A DNA stretch of 57,647 nt, from the IMG/VR virus record IMGVR_UViG_3300021081_000002, positions 1 through 57,647 of that record; one strand, written 5' to 3'. The translations under genes and the position numbers were made by a program. The notes beneath the pieces are model-generated. The model was given only the letters and a program-made list of their open reading frames with translations. It was not told where the DNA came from and did not search any database. Shown piece by piece: positions 1 through 57,647 of this stretch. This DNA comes from a virus. Every line of letters begins with the position of its first letter. Within the stretch, counting starts at the first letter, position 1.

Positions 1-127
1 CACCTAGACTTTAGTCCGCTACTAACCCGAGAGTTTTTTCCAAAATTCTCTTCTGGAAGTGTCTCGTTGCATCCAGTACACAACTTCATCGGATTATCCT
101 TCGGCTAGCTTCTTCGCAGTTGCAGCG
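1..127. repeat. Terminal direct repeat (circle overlap), copy 1
   Basis: Bases 1-127 are identical to 57521-57647, so the record closes into a circle of about 57,520 bp. The repeat falls inside coding sequence (end of TerS and start of the neighbouring HNH gene), which is not where a physical terminal repeat is expected. The odd length 127 is typical of an assembler k-mer overlap. I infer an assembly artefact of a circular or circularly permuted genome. Confidence 0.95.
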
Positions 128-600
128 GCCTTCGTCAGCTTGTCCATGTAGTCAACTGCACCTTCGGCGGCCTGCTTCACTTGCTTTTCCGCTTCCTCCT
201 CGGTTTGGGGAGTCTTGATAGCGAGTCTGTTCCGCTTCCTTGCTTCCCACGTCGCACCGAAGGCATCTTCTCTTCGACGCATCTCGGCCATCAATAGTGC
301 GACATTAGATGCGGCTAGTGGCTTATCGCGAGCGACGTCAGGCCGGCGGATTCTCCACAGTTCGTTGTGAATCATCGCAGCCTCCAACAGACTCCACCAG
401 TCTGTCTCGATCATCAGCTTCGCTTGGGGCGACCGGCGCCACATCTCCCACCACGCTCGGGTCAATTTGCACCACTGGATGTTCGGGTGGTCAGGGAGAT
501 CGAAACCCCTGATTACACCGTCCTCCGTGATGATCTCTTCCTCGAACCGTACTGGGTTCCTGCGGACGCGGTCTTCGTCATCCTTCGGAATATTGCCCAT
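94..600 (-). CDS. Terminase small subunit
   Basis: A 168-residue protein predicted to recognise phage DNA and hand it to TerL for packaging. The Trp-rich central part (WWEMWRRSPQAKL, then TDWWSLLEAAMIHNELWR at about residues 50-82) matches the small-subunit pattern common in actinophages. The C-terminus is charged and helical, rich in Lys, Glu and Ala. The SD AGGAGGT precedes the ATG by 6 bases. Across the circle junction its stop lies 4 bases before the HNH gene at 57609, which separates it from TerL. The assignment rests on family resemblance plus position. Confidence 0.75.
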   Translation of the reverse strand: MGNIPKDDEDRVRRNPVRFEEEIITEDGVIRGFDLPDHPNIQWCKLTRAWWEMWRRSPQAKLMIETDWWSLLEAAMIHNELWRIRRPDVARDKPLAASNVALLMAEMRRREDAFGATWEARKRNRLAIKTPQTEEEAEKQVKQAAEGAVDYMDKLTKAAATAKKLAEG

Positions 601-622: not shown

Positions 623-2146
623 TTAAAAGAACGTTATAATGATGGCTATTCCCTCTTTGCCAGCGCCACCCGCACCACTATTACTACCGTTGACCGAGGC
701 GCCACCGCCTCCGCCACCGCCTCCGTAGATCCCTGCGTCAGCTCCAGCCTGCGCGGCAGTCGTAATAGAAGAAGCGCCACCGCCTCCGCCGGAACCGGGC
801 CTACCAGACCCGGAAACGATTGCTGTCCCGGAGCCGGGCGAGGTTGAATCTACGACCCCACCGACGCCAGCAGACGCCGTCGAACTGTTAGAGGCTCCAC
901 CGTTGCCACCGTTGCTAGCGACATTCGCAGTAGTTATGCCTCCACCGGCTCCACCCCCACCTGCGGCAGCTGACGCGCCGCTGTTGGGTCCAGCGAGCCC
1001 TGTAGCAGATGCGGCACCTCCAGCGGTGCCGATACTCATACCGCTGCCACCACCACCGGCCGTACCTAGTCCATTTGTACCGCCGCTGCCTCCAGCACCA
1101 GCTCCCGCGCGCACAAGCCCCGTACCGATTCCTGTAGAGGTTCCAGCGGCACCGGCCGCTCCATCGGTGTCGTTCGCTGTGACCGCTGCGCCACCGGCCC
1201 CGCCACCGCTGCCTACAATTACAGCTAACGTACTAGATAGGACGGAAGCAGGAAAGGTCGCCATCGTTTGGCCTCCGCCACCGCCTCCGCTGCCACCAGC
1301 TCGGACGGTGCCAGCTGCGCCACGTCGACCGGAACCTCCACCCGCGCCACCTCCGACAAGGAAAACATGCACGACTGTTGCGCCGGACGGTTTGGTCCAG
1401 GTGCCAGAGGTTGTAAATACTTGGACGTCGGGTGTCGGGGCTGCGGCACCAGTCGCGCCAGTAGGACCAACTAACGACACCCCGGAGGGCCATGAGCCCG
1501 TAGCCTTCGGTCCATACAAGAACGAAGTCGTCGTCCTAATATAGAAATCTCCGTTCACACCTTCAGTTGTTGGGGCGGCAGTTCCACTTAAGACTGTTTT
1601 ACCATCGGCGCCAGCCGAACCTGTCGATCCTGTACTACCTGTAGCTCCCGTGGTCCCCTGGATACCTTGCGGCCCGACTAGACTTGTGCCACCTGGCCAC
1701 GCCCCACTAGCCTTCGGCCCATAGATGGAGTTCGTTGATGTTCGGATGTAGAAGTTTCCATCCACACCCTCGGTAGTCGGTGCGGCGGTACCGTAAAGGA
1801 TGGTATTACCCGCAGCTCCAGTTGAACCGGTAGAACCGGTAGACCCGGTGGCGCCCGGCGTACCCTGAATCCCCTGGATTCCTTGGGGACCCACGAGAGA
1901 GACTCCCGAGGGCCAACTGCCAGCGGCCTTCGGCCCGTATATGAAGTTCGTAGTCGTGCGGATGTACCAGTCGCCGTTGACGCCTTCGGTGGTAGGAACC
2001 GCTGTTCCAGAGAGAATAGTCTTGCCATCTGCACCGGCCGGGCCTGCACCTTCACCCCCACCGCCAGGTGGACCTTGGACCCCAACCTCACTGAAAATAA
2101 TGGTGTCGTCGGGAGCAGAGATAATGATCAGTTCGTCGTCAGGCAT
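623..2146 (-). CDS. Collagen-like, glycine-rich tail adhesin
   Basis: A 507-residue protein, likely surface-exposed on the tail tip. The first half holds three copies of a unit starting DGKTILSGTA and containing PTTEGVNGDWYIRTTT and IYGPKA, separated by collagen-like Gly-X-Y runs (GPQGIQG, TGSTGSTGSTG). From about residue 245 (VFTTSGTWTKPSGA) a Gly/Ala/Ser-rich domain runs to the end and closes with IAIIITFF. That domain is a paralogue of the C-terminus of the upstream gene at 2156-4231. The SD AGGAGGAG precedes the ATG. Glycine-rich domains of this kind occur in phage receptor-binding proteins, so receptor binding is inferred. Confidence 0.7.
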   Translation of the reverse strand: MPDDELIIISAPDDTIIFSEVGVQGPPGGGGEGAGPAGADGKTILSGTAVPTTEGVNGDWYIRTTTNFIYGPKAAGSWPSGVSLVGPQGIQGIQGTPGATGSTGSTGSTGAAGNTILYGTAAPTTEGVDGNFYIRTSTNSIYGPKASGAWPGGTSLVGPQGIQGTTGATGSTGSTGSAGADGKTVLSGTAAPTTEGVNGDFYIRTTTSFLYGPKATGSWPSGVSLVGPTGATGAAAPTPDVQVFTTSGTWTKPSGATVVHVFLVGGGAGGGSGRRGAAGTVRAGGSGGGGGGQTMATFPASVLSSTLAVIVGSGGGAGGAAVTANDTDGAAGAAGTSTGIGTGLVRAGAGAGGSGGTNGLGTAGGGGSGMSIGTAGGAASATGLAGPNSGASAAAGGGGAGGGITTANVASNGGNGGASNSSTASAGVGGVVDSTSPGSGTAIVSGSGRPGSGGGGGASSITTAAQAGADAGIYGGGGGGGGASVNGSNSGAGGAGKEGIAIIITFF

Positions 2147-2155: not shown

Positions 2156-4231
2156 CTAGAAATAGGTAACGACGATGCAAATGCCTGCACCACCTATGCC
2201 ACCCGCACCACTATTGTTCCCGTTGACTGAAGCACCGCCTCCGCCACCGCCTCCTCCATAGATTCCGCCAGCGGCTCCAGTTTGGCCGACTGTCGTAATG
2301 GAAGACGCACCACCACCGCCACCGGATCCAGGCACGCCCGAGCCAGTAGTGATTGCGGTACCAGAACCCGGTTGGGTGCTGTCTATGACACCACCAGCTC
2401 CAGAGGAGGCTGTCGCTGAGTTGCTTGCGCCTCCGTTACCGCCCGCACTCGCGGCGTTACCGGAAGAGATGCCTCCACCTCCGCCACCACCGCCTGATGC
2501 GGCAGACGTCGCAGAGTTAGCGCCAGCCGCGCCAGCCGCCGCAGCGGCTCCACCAGCAGTCCCGAGGTGAGCGCCGTTGCCAGCACTACCACCCGTACCG
2601 GCACTAGCAGTACCGCCGCTACCACCAGTAGGGGCACCAGACCGAACTAGCGTCCCGAACGTCGTCGCTGCGCCACCGGTACCGGCGTTGCCGTCCGTAT
2701 CGTTTGCTGTGATAGCGGTACCGCCTGCGCCAGCCGCACCGATTGTGACGGCTACGGTGGCACCTAAGATTGAAGCGGGGATGCGGTGCGCACTACTCCC
2801 AGCGCCACCACCACCGGATCCACCAGAACGGACTGAGCCGGCTGCACCTCGGCGGCCGGAGCCACCTCCGCCGCCACCAGCTATACAGCTGACGTCTACA
2901 AACTGAGCACCCGTTGGTTTAGTCCAAGTTCCCGTTGCTGTGAACACCTGGACATCTGTGGTTCGCACCGGAGGGACAACGCCCATCCGAGAGATTGTGC
3001 CAAGGTATTCGTCGATGTAGGTGTTGGTGAGGTTGCCGCTGTTGTCGTCTACTCCCGCAGTCGTCGCGCCAGAGTACGCGCCAGCGAGATTGACGTAGGT
3101 ATTCGAAACGCCACTAGCGATGGTGACGTTATGGCCTTTGTAACCCTTAACTCCAACGATTCGGTTGCGGTCCTGTAGCACCGTAACGCCGGTGTCGACA
3201 TTGACGGCGCCTGTACCCCGCCCGGGGATCTGACCCGTGATGGAGTTGCCACCGAAGTTCTCCGACACCGGAACAGCTAGACGGAAGTAGCTGGTGTTGG
3301 TGGCCGCAGCCTCCTTAGCGATATCAAAGAACTGGAAGTCGCTGATGATGTTAGCGGAACCTTCGATGTGAAACAGCGCGCCGTTGGTGGGGACGTGTAA
3401 GAACTCGTACCACCAGCTATCGAAGAGGTTGTCGTGGGGAGTGAACGAAGCATTGCCGGTGATCCTCGCTGCACCAGAGACGCCGCAGTCAGCCGAGCCT
3501 GTGATCGACCTGAACCCGATACCACGGAATCGGTTGCCGTTAGGCTCATCAGCGACGAAATAAGGGACGTCGTTAGCCTTAGCACTGACAGGGGTATTGA
3601 GTGTGATTCGTTCGAAGTCGGAGAGATAGACCCCGGAGCCGGGGTTTGATTTCAGCTCTAGACAAGGCCCACCAGTATTGGCAATTGCGATGTCGCAGAA
3701 CAACGCCGACCCCATGGCCAGCAGCCGGATGCCAGCGTTGTTCTTCGTGGCGTCAGCGACGTTACTGCCCTGGATGAAAACCCCAGATAGAGGCGTAATC
3801 CGTCCCATCGCGGAGGACGGCAGAACATACCCAGTGAAGTCCAGCACCGGCCCCGTCTGAGTACTTGCTTTAATGACAGAACCGTTCGGAGTAGAACCTG
3901 CTCCAACCCCCGCTCCGTCGCCATGAATCTGTACCGAGTAACCGCTTAGGCTCAAGCCGTTGAGGACGTCAATTACCATACCAGCGGGGATGCGAACGAT
4001 CGTGTACTTGCCCCGAGCCTCGGCCGCGTCGAGTGCGTTGATGAAGGCCGCACGGCTCCCCAGGGTGCCGAAAGCTGGGTTGTCTGCGCGAACCTCAAGC
4101 CCAGAGGTGTAGTTGGGGGTAAGGGAGGCAAGAGAGAGGCTGGCGCCAGTATCCGACAACACTAGCGAGTCAGCGTCGGTTATCGTCAGGCTCTCATTAG
4201 GTTCCTGAAATTGGAGATTGTCGCTAGTCAC
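2156..4231 (-). CDS. Beta-helix tail spike with glycine-rich C-terminal domain
   Basis: A 691-residue structural protein. Residues about 50-450 look like a right-handed parallel beta-helix of the pectate-lyase/tail-spike type: a start region SRAAFINALDAAEARGKYT, then many short strands with Gly/Asn turns. Residues about 455-691 (VFTATGTWTKPTGAQ onward) form a polyglycine domain nearly matching the end of the downstream adhesin gene, which points to domain duplication. It overlaps the previous small gene by 8 bases. It could bind or depolymerise a surface glycan; no catalytic residues could be assigned. Confidence 0.7.
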   Translation of the reverse strand: MTSDNLQFQEPNESLTITDADSLVLSDTGASLSLASLTPNYTSGLEVRADNPAFGTLGSRAAFINALDAAEARGKYTIVRIPAGMVIDVLNGLSLSGYSVQIHGDGAGVGAGSTPNGSVIKASTQTGPVLDFTGYVLPSSAMGRITPLSGVFIQGSNVADATKNNAGIRLLAMGSALFCDIAIANTGGPCLELKSNPGSGVYLSDFERITLNTPVSAKANDVPYFVADEPNGNRFRGIGFRSITGSADCGVSGAARITGNASFTPHDNLFDSWWYEFLHVPTNGALFHIEGSANIISDFQFFDIAKEAAATNTSYFRLAVPVSENFGGNSITGQIPGRGTGAVNVDTGVTVLQDRNRIVGVKGYKGHNVTIASGVSNTYVNLAGAYSGATTAGVDDNSGNLTNTYIDEYLGTISRMGVVPPVRTTDVQVFTATGTWTKPTGAQFVDVSCIAGGGGGGSGRRGAAGSVRSGGSGGGGAGSSAHRIPASILGATVAVTIGAAGAGGTAITANDTDGNAGTGGAATTFGTLVRSGAPTGGSGGTASAGTGGSAGNGAHLGTAGGAAAAAGAAGANSATSAASGGGGGGGGISSGNAASAGGNGGASNSATASSGAGGVIDSTQPGSGTAITTGSGVPGSGGGGGASSITTVGQTGAAGGIYGGGGGGGGASVNGNNSGAGGIGGAGICIVVTYF

Positions 4232-4541
4232 TTGCGATCACCTCGCCAATCAACAGAGTTTTGACGTATGGCGCAGTAATACGAAGCGTATGCCTCCCCC
4301 TGCCACTGAGATCATCCGTTTCAGTGGAGGGGAGGGTTAGAGTGATAACGCCCGTGACTCCGACGACGCTAAGCATCGAATTAGCGGTGTTAGCGACGAT
4401 AGTTACGGTATCAGTTACGAATTCCCATTCGATGGTTAGGCCACTGAGATCTACCGGTACACCGGCAGTCAGGTACTGAACCTGTCTGGTAGTGGTGTCG
4501 CCAGTGTATATATAGAAGTTGTAATTAGCTGGTAACCCCAC
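4224..4541 (-). CDS. Small tail/baseplate protein, Ig-like
   Basis: A 105-residue all-beta protein whose pattern (YTGDTTTRQVQYLTAG, PVDLSGLTIEWEF, GVITLTLPSTETDDL) resembles the N-terminal domain of baseplate upper proteins that anchor fibres. It uses GTG with a strong SD (GAGGGAGGG). It overlaps the beta-helix spike start by 8 bases, so the two are probably translationally coupled. Function is inferred from fold resemblance and position. Confidence 0.5.
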   Translation of the reverse strand: MGLPANYNFYIYTGDTTTRQVQYLTAGVPVDLSGLTIEWEFVTDTVTIVANTANSMLSVVGVTGVITLTLPSTETDDLSGRGRHTLRITAPYVKTLLIGEVIASD

Positions 4542-4553: not shown

Positions 4554-5390
4554 CTATCGGTTCTTTCGGAATCGCTTCCACCACACGTGCCCGTGCTGAG
4601 ACTCGTCCACTAGCCTTCGCATCTTTTCGAGATCACCGGTTGCCCGGTTGTAGCGAATAGCGAGGTTGTCATTAGTTCGGGGGTGATGCTGTCCCTTCCA
4701 TTTCCGAGTCACCCAAGTATCGCCATGCTTCGGGTGCCACATATGGAGGACGTCGTTCTTGGAAGTCTTATGCTTCCCATATAGAGTATCGAGCGCTCGG
4801 ACGAAGGCGATGTCTTCACCACCCCAGCCACGGAAGCGCTTATCCATACCACCGACGAGTTCGAATGCCTCCCGGGGCATAATCTGGATTAACGCACCGA
4901 ACCGGTGGCCGAAGGCAGAGCCTTGGATCGACTCGACGTCCAAGTCACTCGGCGGGGACGGGAATCTCAGCGGGTCGGTGGGAGAACTCTGAAGTACTCT
5001 CTCAGTCGCTTCAGCTGTCAATCGGAACACACGGCGGTAGGGAACGAACCACAACGGATATCCCTTTCGCCGAGCGCGGTTGATACGCGCGGCGGCATCT
5101 CTGATTACCTGACCGGGAATATAGGTGTCCGCGTCGAGTATCACAAAGATGTTGCCACGTGCGCGTGAGGCAGCGTCGTTCACCGCGCAAGTCTTCGAAA
5201 AGGGGGTGCCGTTGTCATCCCCCATGACGATCTCGGCCTCGGGGAGTTCGCTAGCCCAGTAATGCTCTAGCCACTTCCAAATACGTTTCCGGTGAGCGTT
5301 ATCTGGCCGGAAGGGCACGAGGAGGGAAATTTTAGGATCGGGCGGTCTGTGATGGGGATGGCGTCGGTGGCGCCACCAGCTACTTACCAC
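4554..5390 (-). CDS. GT2-like glycosyltransferase (DXD type)
   Basis: About 278 residues from a GTG at 5390. The open frame extends to 5537, but that part lies inside the upstream gene and is Cys/Trp-rich, unlike a real N-terminus. Features of a GT-A transferase: ISLLVPFRPDN at the nucleotide-binding strand, ILDADTY (DXD metal/nucleotide-sugar site), and GWGGEDIAFVRALD, matching the C-terminal acceptor-site motif of galactosyltransferase-like enzymes. It is last in the sugar cassette, directly upstream of the tail-fibre genes. Donor and acceptor sugars are unknown. Confidence 0.7.
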   Translation of the reverse strand: MVSSWWRHRRHPHHRPPDPKISLLVPFRPDNAHRKRIWKWLEHYWASELPEAEIVMGDDNGTPFSKTCAVNDAASRARGNIFVILDADTYIPGQVIRDAAARINRARRKGYPLWFVPYRRVFRLTAEATERVLQSSPTDPLRFPSPPSDLDVESIQGSAFGHRFGALIQIMPREAFELVGGMDKRFRGWGGEDIAFVRALDTLYGKHKTSKNDVLHMWHPKHGDTWVTRKWKGQHHPRTNDNLAIRYNRATGDLEKMRRLVDESQHGHVWWKRFRKNR

Positions 5391-6096
5391 TCTGCACCAT
5401 CTGACCAACCAACTCGAACATGTCGTATAACTCGTGCTGCATATCTTCGATCCAGTATCGCGGAGCTTGCTGAGTTTTGCCGAGCACCAGTTCCATGCCA
5501 AGCGAAGCAGAGTAGTCACGGAATTTAAACAACCCACCTTCCTTGTCTAGAGTCGTCGAATACTCGATTCGCCGGGGGATAGCGAAGGAGTCTGCCACGA
5601 TAATGCCGTGTAGTGAACTAGAGACAATTTTCTGGCACCGTCCGATCTCGGCAATAACCTCTAACGGGTCGCCTTCGGGACGGATAATGCGAGGGTTGTA
5701 TTTCGTGAACTGAGTTTCGAGGTGGTGATCGCTCCAGTGGGGAACGATACCGAGGTCGTATTCTTTCTTCACCGAAACGAGTTCATCACTAAGGAGTCCG
5801 GGGTCACCGATAACGATGTCTCGCCGACCACCCGAGGATAACGGACCCCTGGCTCCCAGGACTGTGGCATTGAAAGTCCGAGGGATGACGTCGGTGTTCT
5901 CGAATAGCATCCCAGAGCCAGCGACGATCCCGGTGTAGTGGGGAGTAACCGCTTCAAGGATAGAGCCGACACAGAGGATGTCAGCGTTTACCACTGGCGC
6001 CCATTCGACTTCTATCCCTGCAAATCGACTGAGAAGTAGTGGGGTGAGTTGGTCGCCGAAGTTCTTTTTGCCCTTCCACCAAAACGCAGTTGTCAT
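5380..6096 (-). CDS. Polysaccharide pyruvyl transferase family protein
   Basis: A 238-residue protein. The start FWWKGKKNFGDQLTPLLL and the late motif SSLHGIIVADSFAIP are signatures of the family that adds ketal-linked pyruvate from phosphoenolpyruvate to sugars of cell-wall or exopolysaccharides. GSGMLFENTD and GARGPLSS fit the family core. The SD AAAGGA precedes the ATG by 6-7 bases. Its end overlaps the next glycosyltransferase start. Such enzymes are rare in phages. It could charge a virion or host-surface glycan; the acceptor is unknown. Confidence 0.75.
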   Translation of the reverse strand: MTTAFWWKGKKNFGDQLTPLLLSRFAGIEVEWAPVVNADILCVGSILEAVTPHYTGIVAGSGMLFENTDVIPRTFNATVLGARGPLSSGGRRDIVIGDPGLLSDELVSVKKEYDLGIVPHWSDHHLETQFTKYNPRIIRPEGDPLEVIAEIGRCQKIVSSSLHGIIVADSFAIPRRIEYSTTLDKEGGLFKFRDYSASLGMELVLGKTQQAPRYWIEDMQHELYDMFELVGQMVQSGK

Positions 6097-6100
6097 CTCT

Positions 6101-7012
6101 CTAATCCTTTCGGAGAGCCAGCTTTATACCATCTTCGACGGAGATCTCAGGCGTGTAGTGTTCGAGCATCCTCGTTGGGTTGCCGACGCGGTAGCGGACA
6201 CCAGTAGGTTTACAGATGTCGTATGTCACCTGTGGCCGAGCCACCGGAGCGGTGTTGTGATGTGGCAACCCGAGGAAGCCACGGTCGAATGCGAGATCCC
6301 ATGCGGTCTTAGCTAGTGCCCCCATCTCTGTTCCAACGCCGGTGCAGAGATTGACAGGTCGACGGTCATCATCTCGATATACAGCATAAGCTGCTCGTAC
6401 GACATCGTCGATATGAATCCAATCTCTAGTTTGACCGGGTGGTCCCCACACCGTGAGATCGTTATTTCGGGCACGCCGAATGATGCTTGGAAACGGGTAA
6501 TCAAGAGATTGGTCTGCACCATATCCACTAAACGGCCGGACCACGTGTACTCGTAGGCCGAGTTCGTTTGCGGCCTTAGCGAGTCTTTCTCCGGTGACTT
6601 TGGCCCATCCGTAGTTGGCGTCGGGGTTGGCGACATCGAGAGAGAGATCTCTTTCTTCGAGATTCTTGTGGCAATACTGTCCCTGAAAGTGCGTAGGATA
6701 GACGGCAGAGCTAGAGAAATACAAAATAGCACGCTGCTGAGTCCGAACAGCCCAATTGAAAAGCTCGGCATCCAAGATGAGGTTGTCTGCAAGGTTTAGG
6801 TTCGTCCCATCGATTGTCGCTCTTCCACCGACCTTATAGGCGCAGTGGACGGCGAGGTCGTAGACCTCATCAGCAAAATGGAAATATTCGACAGCAGACA
6901 AGCCGTCGTAGGCTATATCGACGCATCTGACCTCGTAATCGAGGTCAACGAGGTAATCGACCATATGCCGGCCAACGAAGCCGTTGCTACCGGTTACGAG
7001 TGCAGTTTTCAT
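6101..7012 (-). CDS. NAD-dependent sugar epimerase/dehydratase (extended SDR)
   Basis: A 303-residue protein starting MKTALVTGSNGFVG, the Rossmann TGxxGxxG dinucleotide-binding motif. A catalytic Ser region (YFSSSAVYP) and YGWAK (YxxxK) follow, then RDWIHIDDVVRA, typical of nucleotide-sugar epimerases and dehydratases. I chose the ATG at 7012 because it overlaps the preceding stop as ATGA; two further in-frame ATGs lie at 7018 and 7024. It probably makes the activated sugar used by the neighbouring transferases. The exact reaction cannot be told from the sequence. Confidence 0.8.
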   Translation of the reverse strand: MKTALVTGSNGFVGRHMVDYLVDLDYEVRCVDIAYDGLSAVEYFHFADEVYDLAVHCAYKVGGRATIDGTNLNLADNLILDAELFNWAVRTQQRAILYFSSSAVYPTHFQGQYCHKNLEERDLSLDVANPDANYGWAKVTGERLAKAANELGLRVHVVRPFSGYGADQSLDYPFPSIIRRARNNDLTVWGPPGQTRDWIHIDDVVRAAYAVYRDDDRRPVNLCTGVGTEMGALAKTAWDLAFDRGFLGLPHHNTAPVARPQVTYDICKPTGVRYRVGNPTRMLEHYTPEISVEDGIKLALRKD

Positions 7013-7557
7013 TGACATCCCCATATTTGGAAACAGTAGCCCGGGTCGAAGTAGGTCTCGCGGTAATGCGTGGGATTCCAGCCTGTGTCAACTAACATCG
7101 CCTTAACAGCCTCTTGATCCCAACTCCAGTAATGCTCGGGGTTGTCGTCCCGCCACCGACAGATTGGAGTGCTGACGATCAGCTTCTTCGACTTCTGACG
7201 TATCTGTCGTAGCACCGATTCTGGGTCGTCGAGATGTTCGAGGGTTTCGCAGCAAAAGAAGACGTCTACCTCTGGGATCTCCTTTATCGTCTCTTCGATC
7301 GGTCCGCAGTAGGCGTAGCCTGGAGCGTAATCCCCGAGGTACCGTTTCTGGAATGGCAGGCGATTGATGGTGAAAGCGTTACCGCAGGAGAGGTCAGCTC
7401 CGGTGTGGTCAGTGTCGTCCATCAGCTCTGCGGCTAGGTCCAGAGTCGAGCACACACGAAGGACATGATCTGGCCACTGAGTGTGGTCGTGGGGGACGGC
7501 GTAGATCTCTCTTAGCTCTTCGTCTGTATACTTCTCCCGGCAACGGTTGCGGTACAT
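7009..7557 (-). CDS. Class I SAM-dependent methyltransferase
   Basis: A 182-residue protein with GADLSCGNAFTINRL as the SAM-binding glycine-poor loop, DVFFCCETLEHLDDPESVL as the motif after strand 4, and KKLIVSTPICRW as strand 5, as in small sugar or metabolite methyltransferases. The SD GAGG lies 5 bases before the ATG. It overlaps both neighbours within the sugar cassette, so methylation of a cassette sugar is the likely role (inference). Confidence 0.7.
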   Translation of the reverse strand: MYRNRCREKYTDEELREIYAVPHDHTQWPDHVLRVCSTLDLAAELMDDTDHTGADLSCGNAFTINRLPFQKRYLGDYAPGYAYCGPIEETIKEIPEVDVFFCCETLEHLDDPESVLRQIRQKSKKLIVSTPICRWRDDNPEHYWSWDQEAVKAMLVDTGWNPTHYRETYFDPGYCFQIWGCQ

Positions 7558-8312
7558 CCGTACCTCGCTTCAAAGACGTCGGGATTAGCTAAAAGTTCCT
7601 TATCGGTGGGCCAGCCACCGTCAGCCCAGTCGAAGTTGCTACGGTTGCCGTGTTCGGGGAACCGCATCTTCCCGTTGGCGTAATACCCAGCTCCGCAAAA
7701 TGACCGCGTCGGCCGAGCTACCCGAAGAGGCCGCCGCTGAGACATCCGCTCGTACATCCAATTGCATCCGATGTGAGCCATAATCTTCCTTCGGCATATC
7801 GGCCAGACCTGGAATAGCAGTGCTAGCTGGTCGGTCTGGTAGTAGTCACCGGTTATGGTATCGGACAACCCACCGAGTTCGTAATAATTACTCCGCTGAA
7901 TGCCCCATAGCCCCGCAAGAAGTTGCCGACCATGATAGGGGTGGTCTCGGATGACGTGATAGGGCAACTCTGATTGTTGTGACCACTCACGGACAGCTGC
8001 GATTTCCCTGGAACAAAGCCTGGAATCGACATCCCTAAAGAGGATGAAGTCGTGATCAGAATGCTTCACCGCACGGAATCTCCACCACGTCGCGGTCTGA
8101 TCTTCTGGTTCGTCGACAAATTCGAAGTCGGCATGAGGGTTGCTGTTCCGGATACGAGTGACTACTGAATCTGGCACAGATCGACCGCAGTAATACCACA
8201 AGTCCCAGTCTGGATGAGATTTGCGGTAGTCGGCGGCATTTGTTATCGCACCACCGTAGTAGATGTCGTCCTCATCCAAACCAAACAAGCTAAAAGCAAC
8301 TAGCCCCCGCAC
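7512..8312 (-). CDS. Glycosyltransferase-like protein (DXD)
   Basis: A 266-residue protein. DHDFILFRDVDSRLCSREI carries a DXD-type metal site in the place expected for GT-A enzymes, and WDLWYYCGRSVPD resembles the N-terminal strands of GT32-like or capsular-sugar transferases. YYQTDQLALLFQVWP fits the acceptor side. It starts GTG with the strong SD GGGAGGTGA, just after the inserted HNH gene. Specificity is unknown. Confidence 0.6.
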   Translation of the reverse strand: MRGLVAFSLFGLDEDDIYYGGAITNAADYRKSHPDWDLWYYCGRSVPDSVVTRIRNSNPHADFEFVDEPEDQTATWWRFRAVKHSDHDFILFRDVDSRLCSREIAAVREWSQQSELPYHVIRDHPYHGRQLLAGLWGIQRSNYYELGGLSDTITGDYYQTDQLALLFQVWPICRRKIMAHIGCNWMYERMSQRRPLRVARPTRSFCGAGYYANGKMRFPEHGNRSNFDWADGGWPTDKELLANPDVFEARYGCTATVAGRSIQTKS

Positions 8313-8315
8313 ATC

Positions 8316-8711
8316 TCACCTCCCATAGGTTCGGATTCGATGACAGTTAGCACAGACTACGTCGCACTTGTCTATCTCCTCTTGAACCAACCTAAGCGAA
8401 CGATGGGTGCCGGTGGCGATATTAAACTTTTTCTCTTTTGGATTACGGTGATCGAAGTCCATTACGCATGGCGGATATTTATTGCCGCAGTCCATACACG
8501 GAACGTCTTTGACGGAATTGGTGAGGCAGTAGAAAGCTTCAATACGTTCTTTCTTACCAGCGGCTCCCCAATTAGGGTTCTCTCGTCGCTTGACGTTTTC
8601 GCAATTCCTGCAATAAGACTTCAGGCCGTCGTAGCGTTTGGAGTTTTTATTGAACTCAGCCCGAGACTTTTCAGTGCTGCATCCCGGACAACGCTTTAAG
8701 CCGCGCGACAT
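8316..8711 (-). CDS. HNH-type homing endonuclease
   Basis: A 131-residue protein starting MSRGLKRCPGC. It has an N-terminal CxxC pair plus CRNC, then MDCGNKYP, the DFDHRN motif and a late CANCHR, as in zinc-stabilised HNH nucleases. The longer frame (to 8774) is only read-through of the upstream gene. It overlaps the upstream glycosyltransferase by 41 bases, in line with mobile insertion between two sugar genes. Expected to cut a specific DNA site and spread by homing. Confidence 0.7.
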   Translation of the reverse strand: MSRGLKRCPGCSTEKSRAEFNKNSKRYDGLKSYCRNCENVKRRENPNWGAAGKKERIEAFYCLTNSVKDVPCMDCGNKYPPCVMDFDHRNPKEKKFNIATGTHRSLRLVQEEIDKCDVVCANCHRIRTYGR

Positions 8712-9372
8712 CTCCACCAAACTCCCCACTGTCGTTATAGCGCGCGTACTCGGCGATGTCGGCGTTGGCCACAAGGTGGCTGTTCACTTCCTTGTAGTTG
8801 ACGTCATCCTTCCCCTTACCGGCGAGAGGGTGCATATGCTCGACTACCGTCTCCGGGAGATAGGTCAGGCGGTTGAGCGCCATACCCCAGTCTTTCCAGA
8901 CGACGTCAACACAAAGATGCTGGAAGCCAGGTGGGACCATATACCCGAGTGCTCGGGGGATGTTGGTAGTCATCGCTACCTGAGTGGGTATGGCCTCATA
9001 CTGGAAGAGATCGTTTCCGTATACGAACCCCGTTCCCAGTGTCTCCAATGCCTCAAGGTAGTCGTTGTCCCATCCTCGTGTACGAGCACGGTGATCGTCA
9101 CCCATGAAGCCAACTGCAAATCCCAGCCGAGGTGCGAGTGCTGTATAAGCTTGATTAAGTGCGTCGCACATTCCTCTTCGACCGCCCGGGACAGCAACGA
9201 CTCTCCCATATCCTGTAAGGAGCTTGTAGTATGTTGGTAGATACGGGTCGCTGTCGTCACAGACAATCACCAGTTCTGTCGATGCCGTCGTCGTATCTCT
9301 GAAATTGTCGTAGAGTTCTACAGCGCTCTTCGGCCTGCCTTTGGAAGGTACCAGTATGGTCAGCGCGCTCAT
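8671..9372 (-). CDS. GT2-like glycosyltransferase
   Basis: A 233-residue protein beginning MSALTILVPSKGRPKSAVEL, the classic first strand of GT-A/GT2 enzymes. LVIVCDDSDP follows, and GFMGDDHRART at the position of the metal-binding acidic motif. A GGAG SD precedes the ATG. The start lies 116 bases inside the upstream transferase gene, an unusually long overlap in another frame. Late HMHPLAGKGKDDVN is typical of phage glycan transferases. Target sugar unknown. Confidence 0.65.
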   Translation of the reverse strand: MSALTILVPSKGRPKSAVELYDNFRDTTTASTELVIVCDDSDPYLPTYYKLLTGYGRVVAVPGGRRGMCDALNQAYTALAPRLGFAVGFMGDDHRARTRGWDNDYLEALETLGTGFVYGNDLFQYEAIPTQVAMTTNIPRALGYMVPPGFQHLCVDVVWKDWGMALNRLTYLPETVVEHMHPLAGKGKDDVNYKEVNSHLVANADIAEYARYNDSGEFGGDVARLKALSGMQH

Positions 9373-10048
9373 TGATCAGCTCCAGGGTAGCTTCGCGGTT
9401 AAGGTAGGCGGCGTTGTAACGGTGGAGGATTTCGACATCTTCCGGCTCCCAGTCGAGGGTTAGTTTGCCGGTAGGGTCCGCACGGTCGTGATAGAGGCAC
9501 ATCAGCACCCCGGGATGAAACACCGGTTGACCGACTAGCGTATGAGCGGCGTTAATCATCGCTCTGTCCTCACAACCCCAACCCCTCAGCCTTGAGTCTT
9601 GTCCACCTGCAAGCCACCATACGTCAGGTCGACAAACCCAAATTCCTCCCTGAGAAGGTCCTGCTCGGCAGATTGCTCGGTTTCGGAGCTGAGAAAGATT
9701 TGATCCTCCGGCGATATTGTGGATCGCTTTCGGCGACATCTCCCACACCTCATTGAAAGGGAAATGGAGAAGGTAGTCTTCAGACTGAATAGCATCTCTC
9801 AACGCCCTTTCCTCTGGGATGGAGTCAGCGTCGCAGAGGACCACCTTCTCAGCTCCGTAGCTCTCAGCCATCAACACTCCGAGATTTCTCGTCGCAGAGC
9901 GGTTAAAACGGACATAAGATCTGTCATCGGCAACTAAGACGTGATCGAACGGATACATCTCAGAGACGCGGTCCCGAGTGATCTTGAACGGCTCTTCCCG
10001 CGAGCCTGAGTCATCATTCCGGTACAGGAACACGAGAGCAGTCCGCAC
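9257..10048 (-). CDS. Galactosyltransferase-like GT-A protein
   Basis: A 263-residue protein: VLVADDRSYVRFNRSATRN, then VVLCDADSIPEE (DXD), then LRGWGCEDRAMINAAH, the acceptor motif also seen in the transferase at 4554-5390. The GTG start at 10048 follows AAGGAG at 5 bases. It is the first gene of the leftward cassette, so its promoter should lie in 10049-10187. The last 38 codons overlap the next gene. Confidence 0.65.
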   Translation of the reverse strand: MRTALVFLYRNDDSGSREEPFKITRDRVSEMYPFDHVLVADDRSYVRFNRSATRNLGVLMAESYGAEKVVLCDADSIPEERALRDAIQSEDYLLHFPFNEVWEMSPKAIHNIAGGSNLSQLRNRAICRAGPSQGGIWVCRPDVWWLAGGQDSRLRGWGCEDRAMINAAHTLVGQPVFHPGVLMCLYHDRADPTGKLTLDWEPEDVEILHRYNAAYLNREATLELINERADHTGTFQRQAEERCRTLRQFQRYDDGIDRTGDCL

Positions 10049-10187: not shown

Positions 10188-10421
10188 ATGAACTACTACG
10201 ACCAGACCCCGACCACTTACAGCGCTAAGGAGCGTGGAATCTACTACCTGCTTTGGTGTCTGTTTGGCCTCATCGGAGGCCATCAGTTCTACCTCGGCCG
10301 GAACGGCAGAGCGCTGAGCTACATCTTGACGTTCGCGTGGGGCACCGTCGGTTTGTGGATCGACTTGTTCTCTGCTAGGAACCAGGTCAACCGGTCCAAC
10401 GCCGGAGAGTTCAGGAGTTGA
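10188..10421 (+). CDS. TM2-domain membrane protein
   Basis: A 77-residue protein with two hydrophobic segments: IYYLLWCLFGLIGGHQFYLG and ALSYILTFAWGTVGLWIDLF, the order and spacing of a TM2 domain including GGHQFYLGR. Such proteins sit in the cytoplasmic membrane; their role in phages is not known. The SD GAGGGAG lies in the right arm of the upstream hairpin. First of three small membrane genes in a row. Confidence 0.75.
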   Translation: MNYYDQTPTTYSAKERGIYYLLWCLFGLIGGHQFYLGRNGRALSYILTFAWGTVGLWIDLFSARNQVNRSNAGEFRS

Positions 10422-13674: not shown

Positions 13675-13815
13675 ATAGGGGTATATAGCACATGCACACC
13701 CTGCACCTGCGACAGCACGTGCACCCCACGCCACATGGCAGGTACGTGCACCCCACACCACAGCACGAGGTGTGCTCCACGCCACACCCACACCACACCC
13801 CGTCCTCGCCACACC
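13675..13815. repeat. CAC-rich low-complexity segment
   Basis: Dense CACACC, GCACCCC and CCACAC repeats with strong C-over-G bias on the plus strand. The composition changes abruptly from the A/T tract and from the sequence to the right. Confidence 0.7.
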
Positions 13816-13988
13816 CTGATTTGCATTCAAGCTAGGTGTATGCTAAGCTTGAGAGGTAGGGCAAGGAAGACAGAGTTGACAACTGAAGAGGCTAGGTAGA
13901 GGTACTCAGTGAGGTAGTTCACAAACTGATACCCCGGTTGCAGGTCTAGACCCCCTGGAAGTACAGAGGGAATTATCTGAGAGCCACA

Positions 13989-14237
13989 GTGTTATACCTA
14001 GTAGAGAGCAAAATAGCAAAGGGACACACCGATCGGGTTGAACGAAGATCCAATTGGATGCGAGAGATCCGGTTCGTGACCAAGAGTCCTGATGTACCGA
14101 ATAGAGACAGCGTCCAGCTAATGATGCCAGAGGGTTGCCACCCCGAGCGCGTCATGTGGGTATCGCTTCACAGCGATCAGTACTTTATCTCGTTCCGGCC
14201 CACTACTGGTACACACCAATTAGAGAGTTGTGTGTAG
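13989..14237 (+). CDS. Doubtful 82-residue reading frame
   Basis: A GTG-started frame in the gene-poor region with no clear SD. The second half (DSVQLMMPEGCHPERVMWV, then SLHSDQYFISFRP) reads like protein, but nothing was recognised. It may be a decayed gene. Kept only as a low-confidence candidate. Confidence 0.2.
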   Translation: MLYLVESKIAKGHTDRVERRSNWMREIRFVTKSPDVPNRDSVQLMMPEGCHPERVMWVSLHSDQYFISFRPTTGTHQLESCV

Positions 14238-14359
14238 GGTGCGAGGTCATACGCTGTCCAGTGTACGTTGTACGGTTTGAGGGGTCTGTGAAGGTAGTTA
14301 GCCACAGTGCAACAACACGACAACGTACGCGAAACATGAGTCCAGCCACACATGAGCCG

Positions 14360-14931
14360 GTAGTTAGGCGGGATGCCAGACGGCTAGTCAGTAGTTTGAC
14401 GGGATGTCAGAGGCTAGCGGGACTCAAGGCAGTACGTCCCCTACCATCCAGGGGTTACAGGGATGATGAAGACGTGAGTATGGGTGCGTTCCTTGGCGCT
14501 AGCAAGACGGTTGCCAAGTGGCCTAGTGAGGCTAGGCGACGTACCCAGATCCTCTAAGGAGTTGATCGCTCACGGGCCGGGTACTACGAGGGAGAGTGCC
14601 AACGACCGCACTTAGCACGGATTGAGGAGCCGGTGCTATCTGGGGGGAGGTTGATAGGTGACGTTAACGGACCTATCAGACTGTACCAGGGTAGCAACCT
14701 TGTCCGGAAACGTGGAGAGTGCAAGATCAGCTTCATAGACTGATCATGACACAACAGAGAGACTTAACACATACTTAGCACTTAGCTTCACACTTCGCAC
14801 TACATCGCACATAGAGCACTGGACCCAAACACGGGCGGCAACACTGCTTAGAGGATACGTCGTACGACCACAGACGGGCATTTAGGTAGGCAGTCCTAAT
14901 AGAGGGTAGGTAGTTAGGCAGGATGCCAGAC
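14360..14931 (+). repeat. Three dispersed copies of a 21-22-base repeat
   Basis: GTAGTTAGGCGGGATGCCAG (plus AC) at 14360-14381 and GTAGTTAGGCAGGATGCCAG (plus AC) at 14910-14931 differ at one base of 22. A diverged copy, GTAGTTTGACGGGATGTCAG, lies at 14391. No gene accounts for them. Confidence 0.7.
14658..14738 (+). CDS. Possible 26-residue leader peptide
   Basis: GTG start 7 bases after GGGGGGAGG, an SD as strong as those of the real genes, followed by 26 codons and TAG. The peptide (MTLTDLSDCTRVATLSGN then VESARSAS) matches nothing known. The good SD is the only support. Confidence 0.25.
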   Translation: MTLTDLSDCTRVATLSGNVESARSAS

Positions 14932-15026
14932 TGGTGTGTCAGGTCATGAGCGGGATGCTCGCGACACACACGATGTGCTCACACATACAATCACAACTAG
15001 AAGATAGATCAAGAGAAGGTGAGGTA

Positions 15027-15161
15027 ATGAATAGCATCTGTGGCTACCTGCTAGAACACGCAGAGGCCACAACCGAATTCAAGCTTGAGTGGGTTACCAC
15101 CCCGCTTAGGACCGCCATGGGAGTAATGCATCTAGTCCAGCAAAGTGGTATCCTCGGCTAG
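15027..15161 (+). CDS. Small hypothetical protein (44 residues)
   Basis: ATG at 15027 behind AAGGTGAGG. Starts MNSICGYLLEHAEATTEF and ends LVQQSGILG. First gene of the rightward early block, ending 37 bases before the GGDEF gene. No family recognised; the length and strong SD suggest a real small early gene. Confidence 0.5.
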   Translation: MNSICGYLLEHAEATTEFKLEWVTTPLRTAMGVMHLVQQSGILG

Positions 15162-15198
15162 ATGTACTACTGAGAGGGAGAGGGGGAGGTGTTGCAAG

Positions 15199-15907: not shown

Positions 15908-15913
15908 GCGGAT

Positions 15914-16407: not shown

Positions 16408-16408
16408 G

Positions 16409-17401: not shown

Positions 17402-17417
17402 TACCGTGAGTTAACCG

Positions 17418-17450: not shown

Positions 17451-17469
17451 TATTTGCCGAGGGGTATTG

Positions 17470-50041: not shown

Positions 50042-51022
50042 TCACCCCGACTCTATAAGATGAAGGAAGTCTGGAATCTGGTCTTGGGTCTGCTTCCACA
50101 GACGGTCAGAAGCGTCGATAGCGTTAGTAGTGTGCCAGTCGTAGTTGTTGAGGAGAGTCGTCAGCGCCGACTCCCACGTCCACATATCTTTGGGGTCGAT
50201 ATAGGCGAAGGAGACCCCCGCTTCCAATGGCCCGGGGAGGTCAGTGGAAATGCTTGGGATTCCACTGGCGGCGGCCTCCACCGCCACCCGGCCGAAAGAC
50301 TCCACCGTCGACGGCACCAGCAACACCGAGGTCTGTCTGTAGATCTCCAGCGGGTTCTGGGTGTGGGGCAGGATGGTGACGTTGTCCATCTCTCGGACGT
50401 CTTGGTTGCCGTAGGCTCCGAGGACCCCGAGGAACTGGAGATCCGGAAATCGTGCCGCGAGATGATAGAAGACGTCGTGGCCTTTGTCGTAGAACGGCTC
50501 CGTGCCGTCCGACAAGTTCACTAGTGTGATGTAGCCCTTGTCCACCCTCGGAGGGGTGATCTTGTACAGCGCGGGGTCGACCAGCGGATAGAGCACACAG
50601 TTCGGTTTGTGGGTGCCGTTGGCCTCGACTGCCGCGCGGGTGTTGTAGGAGTTGTAGACGAGTTTGTCACAGTACCGTTCGGCTATATTGAGTGAGAACT
50701 CCGTGTAGTTGTGCACCATCTGGACGGTGGGGATCTTGTGTTGTTGGGCGACGAGGCTCCCACGGGCCGCACACTCAAGCTGGGTTATGATGAGATCGTG
50801 TCCAGGAAAATGGAGGGTCGGATCTCTCTTCGACGAGTACGCGTTGACTGGGATACCATCTACTAGGTACGACGCACTACCATCAACGAAGACGCGGCTA
50901 GCAAGCACCTCGACCTTGTGCCCTTCCCGCTTCAGCAGACGGAGGAGGTCGTGGAGCGACGTCTCTGCCCCAGCATTATGGCCACTGCCGACGTATGTGC
51001 TGTTGTAACCGAGTACCTTCAC
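50042..51022 (-). CDS. GT4-family glycosyltransferase (GT-B fold)
   Basis: A 326-residue protein. GHNAGAETSLHDLLRLLKRE is the N-terminal acceptor loop, NLSDGTEPFYDKGHDVFYHL starts the second Rossmann domain, and VESFGRVAVEAAASGIPSIS is the E-x7-E sugar-nucleotide site of GT4. It sits between the capsid and connector genes, where transferases often act on virion proteins or on the host surface. GTG 51022. Confidence 0.75.
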   Translation of the reverse strand: MKVLGYNSTYVGSGHNAGAETSLHDLLRLLKREGHKVEVLASRVFVDGSASYLVDGIPVNAYSSKRDPTLHFPGHDLIITQLECAARGSLVAQQHKIPTVQMVHNYTEFSLNIAERYCDKLVYNSYNTRAAVEANGTHKPNCVLYPLVDPALYKITPPRVDKGYITLVNLSDGTEPFYDKGHDVFYHLAARFPDLQFLGVLGAYGNQDVREMDNVTILPHTQNPLEIYRQTSVLLVPSTVESFGRVAVEAAASGIPSISTDLPGPLEAGVSFAYIDPKDMWTWESALTTLLNNYDWHTTNAIDASDRLWKQTQDQIPDFLHLIESG

Positions 51023-51363: not shown

Positions 51364-52329
51364 TTAGCTAGCGCCTACCGGCTTCAAAATCCCGAACGGG
51401 AAAGTCCCGCCCAGAACCTTGATCGGGTTAGGCACGGCGTAACCGAGCCGCATCACAGCACGGAGCACCTTACCATCCTGCTCTACAGCAGAGTAGGTAA
51501 CGTTTCCCGCGCCATCAGTCAGAACAGCCTGGTCGAACAGGTCGAAGGTTATGTTCTGCTTGATTCCGATGACGAGCTTGTCCCACTCGCCGGCCAGAGC
51601 CAGCGCTTCAGTGTCGTCCCACGCGCCGTTGCCGACTTCGTAGAACGGCTGCCCGAAGACAGTCGCGGGTCCAGCTTCGCTCATCGGAGCGTACACAGCC
51701 TCACCAGTGGTCGCACGGAGCTTCTTGAGCCGCCATGCGAAGCCCTTCCGGGCCACGAATCCGTTGGTGTCGTAGCCGTCTACAGCGAGATCCTCAGCGA
51801 CAGTAGCAAGGTCAAGAACGATGTCGTTGACCGTGTTGCTGATGGTCGTCCCGACGATCGTGGCGTTGCCGGCCGCGTTAGCGCCACCGACTAGACCACC
51901 GACGGGGCCAGAGAAACCGGCCGGGGGCGAACCATCACCGAAGATGATTGCCTGGTCGATCTTTTTGGCGAACGCCCTAGAGACTTCCTTCCGGATTTCG
52001 CTCCAAGCGATGTCGGAGTCGTCCATCCATGCGTCGTCGATACGGACCAGGACAGCGAGTTCATCAGGAGTGATGTATACGTTGTCCCAGGACAGGTCAG
52101 TCTCGGTCTTCCGAGCACTGTCCTTGACAGCCTGGGTTGCACCCGACAGCCAGAACGCATCCGCGAAAGCCTTCAGCACCCGGATACGGTGCTGGTAGGC
52201 AGTCATCGTGAATGTGTTACCCAACTGGAGTACAGCGGAAGCCTCGACAGCGTCAGCGAGAATCCCCGCCGAAACGGTTTCTGGAATCTCTCTCGCGGTA
52301 CGGCTTGTACCAGTACGATTAATAGTCAT
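51364..52329 (-). CDS. Major capsid protein (HK97 fold)
   Basis: A 321-residue protein. REIPETVSAGILADAVEASA, VLQLGNTFTMTAYQHRIRVL, DELAVLVRIDDAWMDDSDIA, and FAKKIDQAIIFGDGSPPAGF are typical of HK97-type capsids (N-arm, E-loop, spine helix, then a short strand). The SD AAGGAGGTGA is complementary to nearly the full anti-SD, fitting very high expression. Confidence 0.85.
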   Translation of the reverse strand: MTINRTGTSRTAREIPETVSAGILADAVEASAVLQLGNTFTMTAYQHRIRVLKAFADAFWLSGATQAVKDSARKTETDLSWDNVYITPDELAVLVRIDDAWMDDSDIAWSEIRKEVSRAFAKKIDQAIIFGDGSPPAGFSGPVGGLVGGANAAGNATIVGTTISNTVNDIVLDLATVAEDLAVDGYDTNGFVARKGFAWRLKKLRATTGEAVYAPMSEAGPATVFGQPFYEVGNGAWDDTEALALAGEWDKLVIGIKQNITFDLFDQAVLTDGAGNVTYSAVEQDGKVLRAVMRLGYAVPNPIKVLGGTFPFGILKPVGAS

Positions 52330-57176: not shown

Positions 57177-57609
57177 TTCGACTCCAGTGATTGAGGTATT
57201 CTATTGACCTATGGAAGATCTCTATGGATTCACCCGCCCCTGCAATTAGCCAATTGCACTTATTGCAAAGAATTCCACGAATGCATTTTCCACAAGAAAG
57301 GTAGCCTGCGCAACAGTAGTGATCGTGATCAACGTGCATGTTTTTTAGGTTGCTATCGATCTTTCCACATATTGCGCAGCCGCCTTGTGCCTCCAGCATC
57401 TCATTAAACTGGTCGGCCGTCATCCCATAGGTTCGCTTAAGGTATTTGTTCCTAGCCGTGAGGGAGTCGTATGGATTACGCTTCGCGTACTCCCGCATCC
57501 AAGAGTTGAGACAGGATTTACACCTAGACTTTAGTCCGCTACTAACCCGAGAGTTTTTTCCAAAATTCTCTTCTGGAAGTGTCTCGTTGCATCCAGTACA
57601 CAACTTCAT
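57157..57609 (-). CDS. Endonuclease VII-like HNH protein between TerS and TerL
   Basis: A 150-residue protein. MKLCTGCNETLPEENFGKNS, GGCAICGKIDSNLKNMHVDH, and CGKCIRGILCNKCNWLIAGA give zinc pairs and a DHDH core. SD GAAGGA at the TerS end; overlaps TerL by 20 bases. HNH proteins next to terminase can be part of the packaging machine in HK97-like phages, but the same family also acts as homing enzymes, and two relatives here are clearly mobile. Confidence 0.75.
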   Translation of the reverse strand: MKLCTGCNETLPEENFGKNSRVSSGLKSRCKSCLNSWMREYAKRNPYDSLTARNKYLKRTYGMTADQFNEMLEAQGGCAICGKIDSNLKNMHVDHDHYCCAGYLSCGKCIRGILCNKCNWLIAGAGESIEIFHRSIEYLNHWSRNGTDTP

Positions 57610-57647
57610 CGGATTATCCTTCGGCTAGCTTCTTCGCAGTTGCAGCG
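57521..57647. repeat. Terminal direct repeat (circle overlap), copy 2
   Basis: Exact second copy of bases 1-127. Bases 57610-57647 include the last codons of TerS again, and the HNH gene that starts at 57609 is complete only in this copy. Remove one copy when the genome is circularised. Confidence 0.95.

What the first reader, a model, noticed from the sequence alone, without database searches (positions are those of the whole stretch)
4554..10048. A phage glycan cassette with pyruvyl transferase
Seven contiguous, overlapping sugar genes (four GT-like, epimerase, methyltransferase, polysaccharide pyruvyl transferase) sit upstream of the tail-fibre genes in the late operon; a further GT4 gene sits next to the capsid gene. 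This is enough to build and decorate a short methylated, pyruvylated glycan. Pyruvylated wall polymers are known in actinobacteria (established); a phage-made version could glycosylate virions or mask host receptors against superinfection.
Basis: partly seen in the sequence, partly recalled or inferred. Interest (0 to 1): 0.75.

Follow-up and report, generated by a model that had tools for sequence, protein, structure and literature searches.

The report
Phage cassette for pyruvate-capped virion sugars
This phage, probably one that infects actinobacteria, carries eight sugar genes wired into its particle-building genes, including a phage-specific gene pair that should cap sugars with acidic pyruvate, so it probably coats its own particles with an unusual charged glycan.

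Summary
Window 4554-10048 (minus strand) encodes seven sugar-type genes: four GTs, a methyltransferase, an SDR epimerase and a PF04230 pyruvyl transferase (PVT). A GT4 gene follows the capsid gene. An exact 127-b terminal repeat shows the genome is complete, so the cassette reads into fibres, terS, terL, portal and MCP.

Related viral contigs keep the order GT-GT-GT-(MT)-epimerase-terS-terL-portal-scaffold-MCP-GT4. In the closest one the PVT-GT pair instead sits between MCP and GT4. PVT plus a beta4GalT-like GT is a two-gene module, adjacent in 39 of 39 loci examined, co-inherited (r=0.91) and nearly confined to viruses (one of 84,980 species genomes has a close homologue). Catalytic-type residues are invariant. 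GT_a and GT_d are homologous to Che8 gp109, from a phage whose virions are reported to be glycosylated.

Best explanation: a cytoplasmic pathway that glycosylates virion proteins and caps the glycan with a pyruvate ketal (about 0.6). Receptor masking and DNA glycosylation are weaker: no export genes, no DNA-hypermodification genes. It is a new variant of phage virion glycosylation. Sugar, acceptor protein and benefit remain unproven.

The parts
9257..10048 (-). GT_a: GT2/GT7C-like glycosyltransferase, 263 aa
   Evidence: phrog_1721 3.6e-18; 36-47% in related contigs; profile of GT_a and relatives hits Che8 gp109
8671..9372 (-). GT_b: GT-A-type glycosyltransferase, 233 aa
   Evidence: phrog_14945 8.8e-39; 34-39% to Streptomyces and Actinoplanes phage GTs; 41-61% in related contigs
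8316..8711 (-).
   Evidence: phrog_2255 2.1e-34; no gene at this place in L172, L173
7512..8312 (-). GT_c: putative glycosyltransferase (FRDVDSR motif), 266 aa
   Evidence: No Pfam or PHROG match; 36-52% and same position in related contigs; relative in the S-SRM01 sugar cluster
7009..7557 (-). MT: SAM-dependent methyltransferase, 182 aa
   Evidence: Methyltransf_23/12/11 at 3e-4 to 1e-3; 49-51% and same position in L172, L173
6101..7024 (-). EPI: extended-SDR nucleotide-sugar epimerase/dehydratase, 307 aa
   Evidence: PF01370 1e-31, phrog_540 3.8e-48; 51-57% in nine viral contigs, just upstream of terS in five
5380..6096 (-). PVT: compact polysaccharide pyruvyl transferase, 238 aa
   Evidence: PF04230 35.7 bits, cut-off 25.3; R83, H163, K191 invariant in 33; model pLDDT 94.6 matches giant-virus PVTs
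4554..5390 (-). GT_d: beta4GalT-like (GT7C) glycosyltransferase, partner of PVT, 278 aa from GTG 5390
   Evidence: PF02709 31.1 bits; DxD, GWGxED and His invariant in 27; Foldseek matches beta-1,4-GalT and chondroitin polymerase
4224..4541 (-). 105-aa phage protein of family phrog_1084 in the same transcript
   Evidence: phrog_1084 1.3e-10; relatives next to the cassette in L173, L174
2156..4231 (-). tail fibre / Gly-rich minor tail protein
   Evidence: phrog_863 5.7e-15, phrog_356
623..2146 (-). second fibre / Gly-rich tail protein
   Evidence: phrog_819, phrog_863
94..600 (-). terminase small subunit
   Evidence: PF25673 1.1e-24
50042..51022 (-). GT4 glycosyltransferase directly downstream of the major capsid gene
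   Evidence: PF13692 1.7e-11, PF00534 9.9e-11; 42-53% after MCP in four related contigs
51364..52329 (-). major capsid protein
   Evidence: phrog_10 7.8e-33
1..127 (.). left copy of exact 127-b terminal direct repeat (circular/complete genome)
   Evidence: identical to 57521-57647
57521..57647 (.). right copy of the terminal repeat

Best explanation
The eight sugar genes form one late-expressed, cytoplasmic pathway that glycosylates the phage's own virion proteins. GT_a, GT_b, GT_c and GT4 start and extend a short glycan on a head, tail or fibre protein. The SDR enzyme supplies or interconverts a nucleotide sugar and the methyltransferase methylates a sugar. The PVT-GT_d module acts last: GT_d (beta4GalT-like) adds a hexose, and PVT transfers pyruvate from PEP onto it as a ketal, leaving an acidic, bulky cap. 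The likely benefit is a changed surface charge and shielding of the particle. Shown here: the genes, motifs, folds, conserved order, module co-inheritance and welding to head genes. Inferred: the order of action, the acceptor protein, the sugar identities, the ketal itself and the benefit.
For: Synteny: GT_a-GT_b-GT_c-(MT)-EPI-terS-terL-portal-scaffold-MCP-GT4 recurs in related viral contigs; in G028 (MCP 68%, TerL 52%) the PVT-GT_d pair (63% and 71%) sits between MCP and GT4, the two ORFs overlapping by 4 nt. Module: PVT and GT_d adjacent in 39 of 39 loci; identity matrices correlate, r=0.91, 0 of 2000 permutations, 26 lineages under 90% identity. Unrelated phages also carry it inside head genes: between terL and portal (L022), between portal and head protease (L038 type), near MCP (L047, L048, L050). 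PVT family score, invariant R83/H163/K191 and fold; CsaB needs R148, H308 and K328 (PMC10435577). GT_d hallmarks and fold. GT_a and GT_d are homologous to Che8 gp109; mycobacteriophages glycosylate capsid and tail tube (PMC12363180 citing Freeman 2023); Corndog has an O-methyltransferase and GTs between portal and protease (PMC4351075). Mimivirus fibrils carry a 4,6-pyruvate ketal and an O-methyl sugar (PMC8456856). No membrane or export gene in the cassette.
Against: No virion chemistry exists for this phage or its relatives. In several large-phage loci the PVT-GT_d neighbours are HNH and helicase genes, not virion genes. Five of 26 GT_d homologues have an N-terminal transmembrane-like helix, which could mean a membrane or lipid-linked substrate. 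Known PVTs such as WcfO act on lipid-linked precursors (PMC6801904). PVT resembles Pvg1p only loosely (TM 0.45, E 4e-3). GT_c and MT are weak or absent in family libraries.
Confidence: 0.6

Rival explanations
1. The cassette remodels a host cell-surface glycan (receptor masking, superinfection exclusion or release of progeny) rather than the virion.
For: Bacterial PVTs act on wall and capsule polymers, some lipid-linked (PMC6801904). An Eggerthella lenta prophage carries a PVT-containing exopolysaccharide operon (PMC8778435). Host csaB, a PVT gene, controls phage adsorption in Bacillus (PMC9703825). Five of 26 GT_d homologues have an N-terminal TM-like helix.
Against: No flippase, polymerase, lipid-linked initiating transferase or membrane protein in the cassette; location among late virion genes in this lineage; homology of GT_a and GT_d to Che8 gp109.
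Confidence: 0.2
2. The GTs glycosylate phage DNA, as in TET or hydroxymethylcytosine phages, to evade restriction.
For: Phage GTs can hypermodify DNA (Pyle 2024, cited in PMC12619734). PHROGs labels a GT_b relative 'DNA methyltransferase'.
Against: No TET/JBP, C5-methyltransferase or ThyA-type hydroxymethylase in the window. Among 29 module-bearing records: TET 0 (the control was also silent), C5-MTase 5, ThyA type 1. Early genes show only ThyX and dCMP deaminase. The PHROG label is misleading: the phiAsp2 fusion carries Methyltransf_24, deposited as an O-methyltransferase.
Confidence: 0.07
3. The sugar genes are recently acquired passengers, or decaying genes of no use to the phage.
For: A homing-type HNH gene has inserted between GT_b and GT_c; the exact gene set varies between relatives.
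Against: Catalytic-type residues are invariant across 33 PVTs and 27 GT_d-type proteins; the pair is co-inherited; the order is conserved across contigs with 39-68% MCP identity.
Confidence: 0.06

Closest known systems
Virion glycosylation loci of mycobacteriophages Che8 (gp108-110) and Corndog (gp35-38)
   Same: Several GTs (with an O-methyltransferase in Corndog) placed among or beside virion genes; GT_a and GT_d are homologous to Che8 gp109
   Different: Those loci as described or fetched contain no pyruvyl transferase or epimerase; here there are eight sugar genes including the PVT-GT pair
CsaB / Pvg1p / ExoV-type polysaccharide pyruvyl transferases (PF04230)
   Same: Pfam family score; NFGD, RGP, GDP and SSLHG motifs; R, H and K in the order of CsaB R148, H308, K328
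   Different: 238 aa against about 400; the phage clade is nearly absent from bacterial genomes (1 close homologue in 84,980 species) and is paired with a GT7-like gene
Mimivirus virion fibril glycans
   Same: A virus-encoded virion glycan carrying a 4,6-pyruvate ketal (poly_1) and an O-methylated sugar (poly_2) (PMC8456856); giant-virus PVTs are the closest viral folds
   Different: Giant eukaryotic virus with long polysaccharides; unrelated virion architecture
Actinoplanes phage phiAsp2 pas33-35
   Same: GT_b relative (35%) in a three-gene sugar cluster after the tail genes
   Different: GT fused to an O-methyltransferase-like domain; no PVT or epimerase in the locus shown
Tunturiibacter phage Tunturi_5 gp300-301
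   Same: PVT (46%) and GT_d (46%) as an adjacent pair
   Different: 308-kb phage; pair not shown next to other sugar genes or virion genes; both annotated 'galactosyl transferase'

Membership tests
Polysaccharide pyruvyl transferase (PF04230) | Profile score above the curated cut-off | tested here: met
   35.7 bits against 25.3, covering the C-terminal half of the profile
Polysaccharide pyruvyl transferase (PF04230) | Conserved PEP-binding/catalytic Arg, His and Lys (CsaB R148, H308, K328) | tested here: met
   R83, H163 and K191 invariant in 33 homologues; equivalence to CsaB is by order and motif, not by direct alignment
Polysaccharide pyruvyl transferase (PF04230) | GT-B-like fold of Pvg1p | tested here: inconclusive
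   Foldseek: Pvg1p prob 0.97 but TM 0.45, E 4e-3; strong match to annotated giant-virus PVTs
Polysaccharide pyruvyl transferase (PF04230) | PEP-dependent ketal transfer to a sugar | not testable with these tools
   needs a phosphate-release or NMR assay
GT7 / beta4GalT-like glycosyltransferase (GT_d) | PF02709 score above cut-off, DxD, GWGxED and C-terminal His | tested here: met
   31.1 bits against 23; D86xD88, G188-W-G-x-E-D193, H219 invariant
GT7 / beta4GalT-like glycosyltransferase (GT_d) | GT-A fold of the beta4GalT type | tested here: met
   model pLDDT 90.4; beta4GalT1, beta4GalT7 and chondroitin polymerase among the top matches, TM about 0.5
GT7 / beta4GalT-like glycosyltransferase (GT_d) | Use of UDP-Gal or UDP-GalNAc | not testable with these tools
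   needs an enzyme assay
Phage virion glycosylation locus (Che8/Corndog kind) | GT genes located among virion genes | tested here: met
   window and related contigs
Phage virion glycosylation locus (Che8/Corndog kind) | Homology to a GT of a proven locus | tested here: met
   GT_a profile to Che8 gp109, 35.5 bits; GT_d BLAST 2e-7 against 12 sequences; the role of gp109 itself was not checked
Phage virion glycosylation locus (Che8/Corndog kind) | Glycan present on virion proteins | not testable with these tools
   needs MS of particles
DNA hypermodification (TET/5hmC glycosylation) | TET/JBP, C5-methyltransferase or ThyA-type hydroxymethylase in the genome | tested here: not met
   none in the window; the TET control rang nowhere, so that part is weaker
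Wzx/Wzy-type surface polysaccharide locus | Flippase, polymerase or lipid-linked initiating transferase in the cassette | tested here: not met
   no strongly hydrophobic segment in any cassette protein and no such family match

The most novel reading that the evidence does not exclude
A phage-specific two-gene module (compact pyruvyl transferase plus beta4GalT-like transferase), carried by at least 26 diverged lineages from a 57-kb actinophage-like virus to contigs over 450 kb, is a general device by which tailed phages cap virion glycans with acidic pyruvate ketals, a phage counterpart of the pyruvylated Mimivirus coat.
Probability: 0.42. Interest if true: 0.78.

Novelty: new variant of a known kind. 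Interest (0 to 1): 0.6.

Why it matters
Phage virion glycosylation has been shown for only a few mycobacteriophages, where it affects antibody recognition. Here is a conserved, nearly virus-restricted enzyme pair predicting one specific, easily detected chemical group (a pyruvate ketal, about +70 Da per site) on particles of many unrelated phages. If true, it adds acidic caps to the known phage surface chemistries, links them to the pyruvylated coat of Mimivirus, and gives a marker pair for finding glycosylated phages in genomes.

Tried and rejected
Close-relative DNA search of the cassette in known phages: only a 96-b piece in Tunturi_5. Close-pattern scans for GT_b, GT_c and GT_a in viral contigs found nothing; the epimerase scan then revealed the syntenic relatives. 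Sequence searches of PDB with the PVT profile, GT_c and GT_b: no usable match. Promoter and terminator scan: no more than shuffles. Rfam: nothing. DNA-hypermodification genes: not found. PHROG label 'DNA methyltransferase' for GT_b rejected: the matched region is the GT part, and the phiAsp2 fusion partner is Methyltransf_24. Idea that the module is always inside virion genes: rejected, since neighbours in several large phages are HNH and helicase genes. Conserved third partner of the PVT-GT pair: none; the next clusters are antisense ORFs of the pair itself or lineage-specific genes shared by at most 11 of 39 loci. The Freeman 2023 paper itself is not held, so its results are cited through PMC12363180 and PMC12619734. 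The Corndog record could not be fetched.
Full report
WHAT IS THERE. The window is a virus record of 57,647 bases whose first 127 bases are repeated exactly at its end, so it is a complete genome of 57,520 bases opened at an arbitrary point. Read circularly, the minus strand carries one late block: cassette, fibres, terS, (junction) terL, portal, scaffold, capsid, GT4, head-tail genes, tape measure, tail. The large terminase subunit is closest to those of Streptomyces, Thermobifida and Arthrobacter phages (34-38%), and the lysin carries an Rv2525c-like domain. An actinobacterial host is therefore likely but not proven.

THE CASSETTE. In transcription order: GT_a (9257-10048), GT_b (8671-9372), an HNH endonuclease (8316-8711), GT_c (7512-8312), methyltransferase (7009-7557), SDR epimerase (6101-7024), pyruvyl transferase PVT (5380-6096) and GT_d (4554-5390), followed by a small phage protein and two Gly-rich fibre genes. 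Genes overlap or lie within about a dozen bases, which suggests one transcript. An opposite-strand TM2 gene (10188-10421) separates this unit from the lysin. GT_c has no family match, and the methyltransferase scores below Pfam's cut-off. Both are kept as members because they keep their place in relatives.

THE SAME ORDER ELSEWHERE. A scan with the epimerase found nine viral contigs at 51-57% identity. L172 and L173 have GT_a, GT_b, GT_c, MT, a second methyltransferase, epimerase and terS in this order; L174 and L175 keep most of it; L172, L174, L175 and L176 continue into terL and portal, and L172, L174 and L175 on to the capsid. L172 also has a putative sugar nucleotidyltransferase in the cassette (read from its sequence). 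GT4 follows the capsid gene in four contigs. In the closest relative, G028 (the contig of L172), the PVT-GT_d pair is not in the cassette but between the capsid gene and GT4 (MCP 13774-14772, PVT 14857-15588, GT_d 15585-16418, GT4 16699-17703). PVT was not found in the other nine fragments searched. So PVT-GT_d behaves as a movable two-gene module found at one of two sites, both occupied by sugar genes and both in the virion block. This ties the outlying GT4 gene and the cassette into one system.

THE PVT-GT MODULE. A profile scan found 88 viral stretches coding for relatives of PVT, of which 80 loci were kept. I examined 39 loci with the closer type (36 at 43-58% identity to the window PVT, three at 35-37%). 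In all 39 a GT_d homologue lies next to it on the same strand. Identity matrices of the two proteins over 26 lineages, all under 90% identical, correlate at r=0.91 (0.79 without three outliers), with 0 of 2000 permutations reaching this. Only one of 84,980 bacterial and archaeal species genomes held a close homologue (47%, an Actinomycetota MAG contig without GT_d); the next best were at 40% or less. In unrelated phages the pair lies between terminase and portal (L022), between portal and head protease (L038 and four like it), or near the capsid gene (L047, L048, L050). In several large phages, however, the neighbours are HNH and helicase genes, so head-gene location is frequent, not universal.

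ENZYMOLOGY FROM SEQUENCE AND FOLD. PVT passes the PF04230 cut-off. R83, H163 and K191 are invariant in 33 homologues and stand in the order of CsaB residues R148, H308 and K328, which were found critical (PMC10435577). The model is confident (pLDDT 94.6). Its nearest viral folds are giant-virus proteins, several annotated as pyruvyl transferases (TM 0.72-0.80 by query length); yeast Pvg1p matches loosely (TM 0.45). At 238 aa it is a compact version. GT_d has DxD, GWGxED and a C-terminal His invariant in 27 sequences, and its model (pLDDT 90.4) matches chondroitin polymerase, beta-1,4-galactosyltransferases and GalNAc transferases. Pvg1p pyruvylates terminal beta-galactose (PMC10435577). A GT adding a beta-hexose with its partner capping it is therefore the simplest reading, by inference.

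FUNCTION. Three facts favour virion proteins as acceptors: the syntenic bond to head genes, the lack of any export or lipid-linked step in the cassette, and the homology of GT_a and GT_d to Che8 gp109. Che8, Corndog and Myrna virions are reported to be glycosylated, with an effect on antibody binding (PMC12363180 citing Freeman 2023). Corndog carries an O-methyltransferase and GTs between portal and protease (PMC4351075). A viral surface glycan with a 4,6-pyruvate ketal, in a coat that also has O-methyl sugars, is established for Mimivirus (PMC8456856). Sugars with both pyruvate and O-methyl groups occur in mycobacterial glycolipids (PMC6801904). Rivals are host-surface remodelling (kept at 0.2 because some GT_d homologues have a membrane-like helix and known PVTs can use lipid-linked substrates), DNA glycosylation (0.07) and passenger genes (0.06).

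NOVELTY. Phage virion glycosylation is known, and PVT genes in phages have been mentioned or annotated before: the E. lenta prophage operon (PMC8778435) and a Cobetia phage annotation. My literature searches in the held open-access library found no report of pyruvylated phage virions or of this conserved PVT-GT pair. I therefore call it a new variant of a known kind.

Noticed in passing
window 15199-15849 (+): A short phage protein with a GGDEF (diguanylate cyclase) domain, PF00990 3e-20, with an N-terminal hydrophobic stretch; unusual for a phage and not followed.
   Followed up: partly
window 10188-10421 (+): TM2-domain membrane protein on the strand opposite to the late genes, between lysin and cassette.
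   Followed up: partly
window 1-127 and 57521-57647: Exact 127-b terminal repeat: the record is a complete circular assembly.
   Followed up: yes
window 8316-8711, 55117-55746, 57157-57609: Three HNH/endonuclease VII-like genes: one inside the glycan cassette, two flanking terL.
   Followed up: partly
L005 14974-15741 and 16891-17586 (Tunturi_5 gp300, gp303): gp300, annotated galactosyl transferase, is a pyruvyl transferase homologue; gp303, annotated DNA methyltransferase, is a histidine phosphatase by Pfam (2.2e-32).
   Followed up: yes
L007 14001-15791 (phiAsp2 pas34): The PHROG name 'DNA methyltransferase' (phrog_2675) covers a GT fused to a Methyltransf_24 domain, likely a sugar methyltransferase.
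   Followed up: partly
L091 5962-6816: The only bacterial genome contig with the phage-type PVT: an Actinomycetota MAG, without the GT_d partner; possibly a remnant of a phage gene.
   Followed up: partly
L172 3827-4513 and 4715-5296: The sister cassette has a putative sugar nucleotidyltransferase and a second methyltransferase missing from the window.
   Followed up: no
L090: An 8.4-kb contig from another metagenome record (3300019249) with portal, MCP, GT4 and tape-measure proteins 100% identical to the window: the same virus in a second sample.
   Followed up: no
L002, L003, L031, L040, L045 (N-terminus of GT_d homologues): About a fifth of GT_d homologues start with a transmembrane-like helix while most of the rest do not; the reason is unclear.
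   Followed up: partly
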